A DNA stretch of 64,000 bases from Candidatus Tectimicrobiota bacterium (GTDB taxonomy: Bacteria > JACPUC01): positions 124,001 through 188,000 of the forward strand of contig JACPUC010000001.1 in the NCBI GenBank assembly GCA_016192455.1, in the 5' to 3' direction. The notes beneath the pieces were generated by a model. The model ran no database searches, was not told where the DNA came from, and worked only from the letters and a program-made list of their open reading frames with translations. The position numbers were made by a program, and so were the translations under genes. This document shows positions 11,676 through 14,108 of this stretch, in pieces. Position 1 is the first letter of the stretch. The number at the start of each line of letters is the position of its first letter.

Positions 11676-12722
11676 ATGAAACTCCAAGAGCTCTCCCAGA
11701 AGGCGATGATGCGCGAGGCCATGCTCTACGAGCCGCTGGCGTCGGGCAAGGTGCGCTGCGAGCTCTGCCGCCATTACTGTGTCATCGCCGACGGCCGCGA
11801 CGGCATCTGCCGGGTGCGCGCGAACGTCGGCGGCACGCTCTACACCCTCGTCTATGGCCGCGCCATCGCCGCCAACGTCGATCCCATCGAGAAGAAGCCG
11901 CTCTTCCACTTCCACCCCGGCAGCCGCAGCTACTCCATCGCCACGGCCGGCTGCAACTTCCAGTGCGCCTTCTGCCAGAACTGGGACATCTCCCAGATGC
12001 CGAAAGGGGGGCGTCGCCTCGCCGGGCGCTGGTTCCCGCCCGAGGCGGTGGTGGCGGCGGCGCTGGCAACGGGCTGCGCCTCCATCGCCTACACCTACAC
12101 CGAGCCGACGATCTTCTTCGAGTACGCTTACGACACCGCGCAGCTCGCGCATGAGGCCGGGCTGAAGAACGTCTTCGTCAGCAACGGCTACATGACCGAG
12201 AAGGCGCTGCGGCGCATCGCGCCCTACCTCGACGCCATCAACGTCGATGTGAAGGGCTTCAGCGAGGCCCGCTATAAGCGCGTCATGAAAGCGCGCCTGC
12301 AGCCGGTGCTGGAGTCCCTGCACGTCATCAAGGCGCTGGGCATCTGGCTGGAGGTGACGACCCTGGTCATCCCCACCATCAGCGATGACGAGGCGGGGCT
12401 GCGCGGCATCGCGGCGGCGATTGTCGATCTCGACGCCGGGACGCCATGGCACGTCACGCAGTTCCATCCCGACTACCGGCTCACCGAGCTGCCGCGCACC
12501 CCCCTGGAGACGCTGCAACGCGCGCGTCACCTCGGCCTCGACGCGGGACTCCGTTACGTCTACTGTGGGAACGTGCCCGGGGAGGAAGGCGAGAACACCT
12601 TCTGCTGGGGCTGCGGCGCGCTGCTCATCGAGCGCTGGGGGTACCGGACGAAGGTGATCGGCCTGCGGGAAGGCGCCTGCGGCCGCTGCGGCAGCAAGAT
12701 TGACGGCGCGGGGCTGCCGTAG
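11676..12722 (+). CDS. amrS: AmmeMemoRadiSam-system radical SAM enzyme AmrS
   Basis: A 348-residue radical SAM protein. The catalytic 4Fe-4S motif CxxxCxxC is at Cys93/97/100 (GCNFQCAFCQNWDIS). Before it is a four-Cys N-terminal knuckle (C28, C31, C35, C45: VRCELCRHYCVIADGRDGIC) and a C-terminal rubredoxin-like Cys set (FCWGCGALL, GRCGSKIDG). Together with YTYTEPTIFFEY and NVDVKGF this is the COG1180 subgroup called AmrS, usually co-occurring with AMMECR1 and MEMO proteins. Neither partner is adjacent here. The substrate of the system is unknown. The next gene, 65 bp downstream, is the glutaredoxin-like selenoprotein candidate, and a second radical SAM gene follows. Confidence 0.9.
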   Translation: MKLQELSQKAMMREAMLYEPLASGKVRCELCRHYCVIADGRDGICRVRANVGGTLYTLVYGRAIAANVDPIEKKPLFHFHPGSRSYSIATAGCNFQCAFCQNWDISQMPKGGRRLAGRWFPPEAVVAAALATGCASIAYTYTEPTIFFEYAYDTAQLAHEAGLKNVFVSNGYMTEKALRRIAPYLDAINVDVKGFSEARYKRVMKARLQPVLESLHVIKALGIWLEVTTLVIPTISDDEAGLRGIAAAIVDLDAGTPWHVTQFHPDYRLTELPRTPLETLQRARHLGLDAGLRYVYCGNVPGEEGENTFCWGCGALLIERWGYRTKVIGLREGACGRCGSKIDGAGLP

Positions 12723-12787
12723 GGACACGGCAGGAGCGGGGGGAGCGGCTCGGCTTGGCGGTTCCTCAAGAAAAGGAGAGCCCGCAT

Positions 12788-13015
12788 ATGGGTGAAGGAA
12801 AGGTCTTGATCTTCGGGAAGGACACGTGACCCTACACGACGGATGCCCGTGAGGACTATTCCAAGCGAAAGGTTGCATTCACGTACGTCAATGTGAAGAA
12901 GAACCCCGATGACCTTGAGCGCATGCTCGACTACTCGGGGGGAAGCCGCGAAATCCCGGTGATCGTCGAGGACGGCAAGGTCACCATCGGCTTCGGCGGC
13001 TCGTGAGAGGTGTAG
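12788..13015 (+). CDS. Glutaredoxin-like selenoprotein candidate with two UGA (Sec) codons
   Basis: Conventional reading stops at codon 14, but reading UGA as selenocysteine gives a coherent 75-residue thioredoxin-fold protein: MGEGKVLIFGKDT-Sec14-PYTTDAREDYSKRK, then VNVKKNPDDLERML, SGGSREIPVIVEDGKVTIGFGGS, a second UGA (13004, Sec73), then Glu-Val and a TAG stop at 13013. The first Sec occupies the glutaredoxin CPYT site (KDT-U-PYT); cis-Pro (EIPVIV) and a GG motif follow, as in glutaredoxins. An AAGGAG-type site lies about 9 bases before the ATG. I recall a family annotated as UXX-star (seleno)protein; the U-x-x-stop end fits that name, from memory. It probably does thiol/selenol redox chemistry, perhaps serving the flanking radical SAM enzymes. 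If the second UGA is a true stop the protein is 72 residues. Confidence 0.8.
12839..12850 (+). promoter_or_regulatory. Possible SECIS hairpin after first UGA
   Basis: ACGG-ATGC-CCGT can form a 4-bp stem with a 4-nt loop containing G, centred 16-19 bases after the U of the UGA at 12827. Bacterial SECIS elements lie just inside the reading frame at this distance, but a stem this short is weak evidence alone. Confidence 0.35.
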
Positions 13016-13037
13016 CGGCGGGCAGGTGCCCGCATGC
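13015..13037 (+). promoter_or_regulatory. SECIS-like hairpin after second UGA
   Basis: GCGGGC-AGGT-GCCCGC (13018-13033) is a perfect 6-bp GC stem with an AGGU loop, extended below by two more pairs. The loop lies 20-23 bases after the U of the UGA at 13004. An AGGU-containing apical loop at this spacing resembles the E. coli fdhF SECIS loop. It could also act as a weak transcription pause. Confidence 0.5.
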
Positions 13038-13181
13038 CGCCGCGGCGGTCCCGCCGGTGAGCTGGACCGGCGAGGGCGCGGGCGTTCGCTGCCGAAGGAT
13101 GGCGCGGCTGCGCCTCGCGCGCCGCACCGTGGTCGAGAGCGCAGCGGTGGGCCGCTCGTGGGGTCCACCACGAGAAGAGCG

Positions 13182-14108
13182 ATGCCGACGCCTTGCTACC
13201 TGCGCACGTACAAGGAGGGCGGCTTCGCCGCCAAGCTGGCGCGCGCCTACGAGCTGCTGGCGCCTTGCGTCGCCTGTCCCCGGCGCTGCCAGGTGGACCG
13301 CCTCCATGACCAGCGCTCGGTCTGCCGGACAGGACGCTGGGCCAAGGTCGACTGCGCCTTCCCGCACCACGGCGAGGAGGACTGCCTGCGCGGCTGGAAC
13401 GGCTCCGGCACGATCTTCTTCAGCTTCTGCAACCTGCGCTGCGTCTTCTGCCAGAACTTCTCCATCAGTCAGCTTGGCTCCGGCACGGAGCGCACCCCCG
13501 CGGAGCTGGCGCGCATGATGCTCCGCCTCCAGGAGCACGGCTGCCACAACATCAACTTCGTCACCCCCGAGCACGTCGTGCCGCAGATCGTCGAGGCCCT
13601 GCCCCTGGCAATCGAGCAGGGGCTGCGCCTTCCCCTGGTCTACAACACCTCTGCCTACGACGACCTGGAGAGCTTGCGCCTGATGGAGGGGGTTATCGAC
13701 ATCTACATGCCGGACTTCAAGGTTTGGGATGCCGAAACGGCGCGCCGGCTCTTGAAGGCGCGCGACTACCCGGAGGTGGCGCGGGCGGCAATCAAGGAGA
13801 TGCACCGCCAGGTCGGCGACCTGCGGATCAGCGACGAGGGGCTGGCGACGCGGGGCGTGCTGGTGCGGCACCTCGTCATGCCGAACGACCTGGCCGGCAC
13901 GCGCCAGATCATGCGCTTCCTGGCGCGGGAGGTCTCTCCCGACAGCTACGTGAACGTCATGGGGCAGTACCGTCCCGCCTGGAAAGCCGCAAGGTACCCG
14001 GAGATCAACTGCCCCACCCTTCCCGAAGAGACGCAACGCGCGCTCGACATCGCGGAGGAGGAGGGCATCAGCCGCGTCGACCAGCGCCTGTGCCGGCTCC
14101 GGTATTGA
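13182..14108 (+). CDS. Radical SAM protein, PflX/COG1313 type
   Basis: A 308-residue protein related to pyruvate formate-lyase activating enzymes. N-terminal Cys motif CVACPRRCQVDR and GRWAKVDCAFPHHGEEDCLRG precede GSGTIFFSFCNLRCVFCQN, where Cys83/87/90 form the radical SAM CxxxCxxC. The C-terminal half has the YMPDFKVWD segment typical of COG1313. These proteins are distinct from true PflA and have no agreed substrate. The ATG at 13182 has GAAGAG upstream. Placement directly after the Sec-containing glutaredoxin-like gene, and downstream of amrS, makes a three-gene redox/radical SAM neighbourhood on one strand. Confidence 0.88.
   Translation: MPTPCYLRTYKEGGFAAKLARAYELLAPCVACPRRCQVDRLHDQRSVCRTGRWAKVDCAFPHHGEEDCLRGWNGSGTIFFSFCNLRCVFCQNFSISQLGSGTERTPAELARMMLRLQEHGCHNINFVTPEHVVPQIVEALPLAIEQGLRLPLVYNTSAYDDLESLRLMEGVIDIYMPDFKVWDAETARRLLKARDYPEVARAAIKEMHRQVGDLRISDEGLATRGVLVRHLVMPNDLAGTRQIMRFLAREVSPDSYVNVMGQYRPAWKAARYPEINCPTLPEETQRALDIAEEEGISRVDQRLCRLRY

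What the first reader, a model, noticed from the sequence alone, without database searches (positions are those of the whole stretch)
12788..13015. Glutaredoxin-like gene with two in-frame UGA codons between two radical SAM genes
The frame is invisible to standard gene calling. Read through, it gives a clean 75-residue Grx-fold protein with Sec in place of the first Cys of the CPYT motif, and a second UGA three codons before the TAG, giving a U-Glu-Val-stop tail. A strong RBS precedes it and a perfect hairpin with an AGGU loop lies 20-23 bases after the second UGA. Double-Sec bacterial proteins are rare. The family name UXX-star is recalled from memory.
Basis: partly seen in the sequence, partly recalled or inferred. 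Interest (0 to 1): 0.85.

Follow-up and report, generated by a model that had tools for sequence, protein, structure and literature searches.

The report
Two-selenocysteine glutaredoxin-like gene (UXX-star)
This is a real but already catalogued kind of bacterial gene, a small glutaredoxin-like protein whose two in-frame UGA codons are read as selenocysteine; the added observation is that the RNA signal for the second one sits beyond the gene's own stop codon.

Summary
The reading frame at 12788-13015 is a real gene. Read with UGA as Sec it encodes a 75-residue glutaredoxin-fold protein that hits NCBIfam NF041114, "UXX-star selenoprotein family 1", at 122.7 bits (cut-off 72). A 2026 review already lists this family with two Sec, so the gene is a new member of a known kind. 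The genome has selA, selB, selC and a Sec-containing selD, so it should be able to decode UGA as Sec. In 35 Sec-containing members compared, the C-terminal codon is UGA in all 35; the N-terminal codon is UGA in 25 and Cys in 10. A hairpin that fits the published bacterial SECIS model follows the C-terminal UGA in 32 of 35. Its stem starts beyond the stop codon, its loop sits at a near-fixed distance, and its stem sequences differ between genomes while staying paired. No hairpin in the window fits that model for the first UGA. The two flanking radical SAM genes are not a conserved setting. Most likely function: a selenol-based thiol/disulfide oxidoreductase, or a soft-metal-binding redoxin, in which Sec73 takes the place of the C-terminal helix of ordinary glutaredoxins. 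This is inferred, not shown.

The parts
12773..12778 (+). Shine-Dalgarno AAGGAG, 9 nt before the ATG
   Evidence: sequence
12788..13015 (+). UXX-star family 1 selenoprotein gene, 75 residues with two Sec, TAG stop
   Evidence: translation; NF041114 122.7 bits against cut-off 72; PF00462 above cut-off
12827..12829 (+). first in-frame UGA, Sec14 of the UPYT motif (position of the glutaredoxin nucleophile)
   Evidence: 25 of 35 Sec-containing members have UGA here and 10 have a Cys codon
13004..13006 (+). second in-frame UGA, Sec73 of the U-x-x-stop tail
   Evidence: UGA in 35 of 35 Sec-containing members
13013..13015 (+). TAG stop codon
13018..13033 (+). predicted bacterial SECIS upper stem-loop for the second UGA, GCGGGC-AGGU-GCCCGC, entirely 3' of the stop codon
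   Evidence: fits bSECIS model (loop 4 nt with G in position 2, spacing 17 nt, 6 bp, -19.2 kcal/mol); position and pairing conserved in relatives; no T run or terminator

Best explanation
A member of the known UXX-star selenoprotein family 1. SelB carrying Sec-tRNA(Sec) decodes two UGA codons in one short mRNA. For the C-terminal UGA, SelB most likely binds a stem-loop that starts just after the stop codon, so the signal puts no constraint on the protein sequence (inferred from comparative RNA structure). The product is a compact glutaredoxin domain. Sec14 sits where glutaredoxins have the nucleophilic Cys, and the usual resolving Cys is Thr. The C-terminal helix is replaced by a G-G-S/T-Sec-x-x tail next to where glutaredoxins bind glutathione. 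The most likely job is thiol/selenol-disulfide exchange, with Sec73 as second redox residue or as soft-metal ligand. That step is inferred, and the substrate is unknown. The confidence given is for the identification as a two-Sec UXX-star selenoprotein; for the redox role I would say about 0.6.
For: NF041114 match above its curated cut-off. Frame continuous across both UGAs in relatives from Acidobacteria, NC10, Nitrospirae and others. Third-position excess of substitutions downstream of UGA1, e.g. 10/8/23 at codon positions 1/2/3 against L029. selC at 75.5 bits, selB, selA and selD above cut-offs, with SelD itself a TGA form. Post-stop hairpin in 17 of 21 loci against a shuffle mean of 3.4 and maximum of 8, then 12 of 12 later Sec-containing members, while 3 of 3 members without Sec lack it. 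Predicted structure pLDDT 89.4; glutaredoxin/NrdH structures match to residue 71, Z about 10.
Against: No expression, selenium-incorporation or protein data. No model-compliant SECIS for UGA1 in the window, although fewer than half of the UGA1-containing members have one (12 of 25). The redox or metal role rests on fold and residue position only.
Confidence: 0.93

Rival explanations
1. Sec73 mainly binds a soft metal or metalloid (with Sec14), making the protein a metal chaperone or detoxification redoxin rather than a thiol-disulfide catalyst.
For: The review states that Sec in the UXX-star family may act as a metal ligand or bind unknown substrates (PMC13188914). The C-terminal residue is always Sec in Sec-containing members and no Cys form was seen, suggesting selenium-specific chemistry.
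Against: No metal genes recognised beside this gene, and no shared neighbourhood in relatives.
Confidence: 0.35
2. Only one UGA is decoded as Sec in this organism; for the other (most likely the first) translation stops or a near-cognate residue is inserted.
For: No hairpin fitting the bSECIS model follows UGA1 in the window; its fold is no better than synonymous recoding gives (z -0.59).
Against: 25 of 35 members keep UGA1 and the rest have Cys; stopping at codon 14 would leave no product to conserve; the frame downstream is under protein-level constraint. The review notes that some bSECIS elements do not fit the model.
Confidence: 0.06
3. The post-stop hairpin is a transcription terminator or a chance GC-rich hairpin, not a SECIS.
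For: Hairpin strength alone is not unusual for the window (p = 0.31).
Against: No T run of terminator type after it and no terminator hit in the window. Its loop lies at +18 to +26 from the UGA almost everywhere, mostly with G in its first two positions; stem sequences vary but stay paired; members without Sec lack it.
Confidence: 0.06
4. A pseudogene or sequencing artefact with accidental stop codons.
For: None beyond the in-frame stops.
Against: The same two TGA positions recur in many lineages; third-position substitutions dominate; both stops are TGA and never TAA or TAG; the Sec machinery is present.
Confidence: 0.01

Closest known systems
UXX-star selenoprotein family 1 (NCBIfam NF041114; 'Distant Grx-like protein 1')
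   Same: Length, Grx domain, UPYT motif, G-G-x-U-x-x-stop tail, two Sec; match over the whole 70-position model
   Different: Nothing essential; tail is U-E-V with TAG, while many relatives have U-G-V and about half end with UGA
UXX-star families 2 and 3 (NF041211, NF047338) and HUGP/GUXX-star fusion (NF045501)
   Same: Grx-like domain of the same superfamily (NF041212 Uxx_star matched above its cut-off)
   Different: Scores below those curated cut-offs (60.8 against 100; 49.9 against 97; 58 against 325)
YruB-family glutaredoxin-like proteins (TIGR02196) and NrdH/glutaredoxin 3
   Same: Fold and N-terminal CPY/UPY motif
   Different: Those mostly have CxxC and continue into a C-terminal helix (GFDxxxLxxL); this protein ends after GG with a Sec tail
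Clostridial selenoprotein-type glutaredoxins cGrx1/cGrx2 (7c10, 4tr0)
   Same: Grx fold; structural match
   Different: No C-terminal Sec tail

Membership tests
UXX-star selenoprotein family 1 (NF041114) | Score over the curated HMM cut-off of 72 bits across the full model | tested here: met
   122.7 bits, positions 1-70 of 70; 108.2 bits as a genome match with 2 TGA inside
UXX-star selenoprotein family 1 (NF041114) | Sec three codons before the stop (U-x-x-stop) | tested here: met
   TGA-GAG-GTG-TAG at 13004-13015
UXX-star selenoprotein family 1 (NF041114) | UxxT motif with N-terminal Sec; two Sec per protein (review table) | tested here: met
   UPYT at residues 14-17; review entry 'UxxT, 2 Sec'
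Bacterial selenoproteins | selA, selB, selC, selD in the genome | tested here: met
   tRNA-Sec over the Rfam cut-off
Bacterial selenoproteins | SECIS hairpin after the second UGA fitting the published model (3-9 nt loop, G in first two positions, 16-37 nt spacing, 4-16 bp, MFE at most -7.5) | tested here: met
   17 nt spacing, AGGU loop, 6 bp, -19.2 kcal/mol; model from PMC13188914
Bacterial selenoproteins | SECIS within the coding region (usual location) | tested here: not met
   The stem-loop for the second UGA starts 3 nt after the TAG. This is the common state in the whole family, so it marks a variant location rather than non-membership
Bacterial selenoproteins | SECIS hairpin after the first UGA fitting the same model | tested here: not met
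   none found in the window; 12 of 25 UGA1 members have one. The review notes that some putative bSECIS elements fail the model
Bacterial selenoproteins | Selenium shown in the protein | not testable with these tools
   needs 75Se labelling or mass spectrometry
Glutaredoxin (PF00462) | Domain over gathering score | tested here: met
   41.2 bits against 22.9

The most novel reading that the evidence does not exclude
Across a whole bacterial selenoprotein family the SECIS for the C-terminal Sec lies outside the coding region, just 3' of the stop codon, unlike the usual description of bacterial SECIS elements as lying within coding regions. In about half the members the stop is itself UGA, 9 nt after the Sec UGA, so the spacing to the hairpin would have to tell two nearby UGA codons apart. 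Whether this has been reported for UXX-star genes could not be checked, because the 2025 mSystems paper was not in the library.
Probability: 0.8. Interest if true: 0.5.

Novelty: new member of a known kind. Interest (0 to 1): 0.35.

Why it matters
The gene is invisible to standard gene calling and adds a member in a phylum that is represented by this single held genome. The family offers a simple natural test of how SelB tells a Sec UGA from a stop UGA: two UGA codons three codons apart, with a short hairpin that carries no coding constraint and can be mutated freely.

Tried and rejected
Function from neighbourhood: the AmrS and radical SAM neighbours were not found within the fetched flanks (1.5-3 kb where the contig allows) of the relatives then held, and no neighbour is shared across the family, so a link to radical SAM chemistry is rejected as unsupported. 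Rfam search of 12700-13250 gave nothing real. A SECIS for UGA1: single-sequence fold, synonymous-codon shuffles and the published model all gave no support in the window. Phylum-wide sampling around G000 failed because it is the only held genome of its phylum. The 2025 mSystems paper by Haft and Tolstoy is not held. MAFFT alignment of the hairpins was ungapped and not used for pair counts; pairs were counted per hairpin instead.

Full report
What is there. The sequence at 12788-13015 has an ATG, an AAGGAG ribosome-binding site 9 nt upstream, two in-frame TGAs and a TAG. Table 11 gives no ORF for this frame. With TGA as Sec the product is MGEGKVLIFGKDTUPYTTDAREDYSKRKVAFTYVNVKKNPDDLERMLDYSGGSREIPVIVEDGKVTIGFGGSUEV. 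It matches NCBIfam NF041114, UXX-star selenoprotein family 1, at 122.7 bits against a cut-off of 72, over the full model, and Pfam glutaredoxin PF00462 above its cut-off. It scores below the cut-offs of UXX-star families 2 and 3.

Known kind. A 2026 review (PMC13188914) lists 'Distant Grx-like protein 1 (UXX-star selenoprotein family 1), NF041114, UxxT, 2 Sec, WP_258313609.1'. The family and its two Sec residues are therefore already described.

Sec machinery. The window's genome (4.46 Mb, 88% complete) holds tRNA-Sec at 75.5 bits, selB, selA next to selB and selD with an in-frame TGA, i.e. a Sec form VAGUAAKLGPG.

Relatives. One scan of genome contigs and family searches of 98, 4 and 386 held genomes gave 35 Sec-containing members, counting the window and a few close pairs such as L038/L067, L034/L035 and L068/L069. 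The C-terminal codon is TGA in 35 of 35. This figure is partly by construction, since U-x-x-stop was used to place the codon, but only three further hits lacked it. The N-terminal codon is TGA in 25, TGC in 7 and TGT in 3. The three members that score above the family cut-off without a C-terminal Sec have no Cys in its place; they end as GYTGD or GYTGDTNI (L043, L079, L080). So the C-terminal Sec is the constant feature and the N-terminal one swaps with Cys. Substitutions downstream of the first TGA fall mostly in third codon positions, as expected for translated sequence.

SECIS of the second UGA. [quoted passage not shown] The window has GCGGGC-AGGU-GCCCGC at 13018-13033: 17 nt spacing, -19.2 kcal/mol. 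Alone this is not significant in GC-rich DNA (p = 0.31). Across 21 members (two of the close pairs reduced), 17 have a perfect stem of at least 5 bp with the loop starting at +18 to +24 from the U of the UGA; shuffles give 3.4 on average and at most 8 in 300, and other stretches of the same loci give 2 to 8. The innermost five pairs take three to five pair types each. In the members fetched later, 12 of 12 with Sec have such a hairpin with its loop at +19 to +25, and 3 of 3 without Sec do not show one in the stretch after their ends (read by eye for those three). By the full model 32 of 35 pass. There is no terminator-like T run. The upper stem starts at +10 to +19, at or after the stop codon that occupies +9 to +11, so the element lies essentially in the 3' untranslated region. 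The review and an earlier paper describe bacterial SECIS elements as lying in coding regions. In 17 of 35 members the terminal stop is itself UGA. The spacing from that stop to the loop is 9 nt shorter, and for nearly all below the 16 nt minimum of the model, which would explain how it stays a stop; this is inference.

SECIS of the first UGA. Nothing in the window fits the model; folding is average for the sequence and for synonymous recodings (z 0.12 and -0.59). Among UGA1 members 12 of 25 fit, among Cys forms 3 of 10. This point stays open.

Structure and function. AlphaFold2 with a 16-sequence alignment (C in place of U) gave pLDDT 89.4. Foldseek and VIA-align match glutaredoxins and NrdH to residue 71 (Z about 10). 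Ordinary YruB-type relatives continue after that point into GFDxxxLxxL; here the helix is replaced by GSUEV. From established knowledge of glutaredoxins, the GG turn lines the glutathione site beside the N-terminal nucleophile, so I infer that Sec73 sits near Sec14 and could act with it as a redox pair or bind a soft metal; the review suggests metal or substrate binding for this family. No substrate is known.

Neighbourhood. Upstream is AmrS (TIGR04337, 353.5 bits), downstream a radical SAM protein (PF04055). Neither occurs within the fetched flanks of relatives and no neighbour is shared widely. Two relatives (L036, L081) lie beside nuoN, and in L036 between nuoM and nuoN. The radical SAM setting is therefore probably incidental.

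Verdict. Observation confirmed and interpretation supported; a new member of a known family. The part with some wider interest is the conserved SECIS beyond the stop codon.

Noticed in passing
L036:1-2722, L081: In L036 a UXX-star gene with a CPYC N-terminus lies between nuoM and nuoN; in L081 a similar gene precedes nuoN. A link to complex I in that subgroup is possible.
   Followed up: partly
relatives: 17 of 35 Sec-containing UXX-star genes use UGA as stop 9 nt after the Sec UGA, so one codon is read two ways within three codons.
   Followed up: partly
L043, L079, L080: Three UXX-star relatives from one family of genomes have no C-terminal Sec; it is lost by truncation or replacement, not by Cys substitution, and the hairpin is absent.
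   Followed up: partly
window 11676-12722: AmmeMemoRadiSam radical SAM enzyme (TIGR04337) without a recognised Memo gene beside it; Memo-family genes are on other contigs.
   Followed up: partly
L018: selD of this genome is itself a selenoprotein gene with an in-frame TGA.
   Followed up: no
window genome G000: It is the only held genome of its phylum, so the organism belongs to a poorly sampled phylum.
   Followed up: no
L099, L106, L052, L056: YruB-like glutaredoxins with TGA at the first Cys of CxxC-type motifs: apparent single-Sec relatives with the normal C-terminal helix.
   Followed up: no
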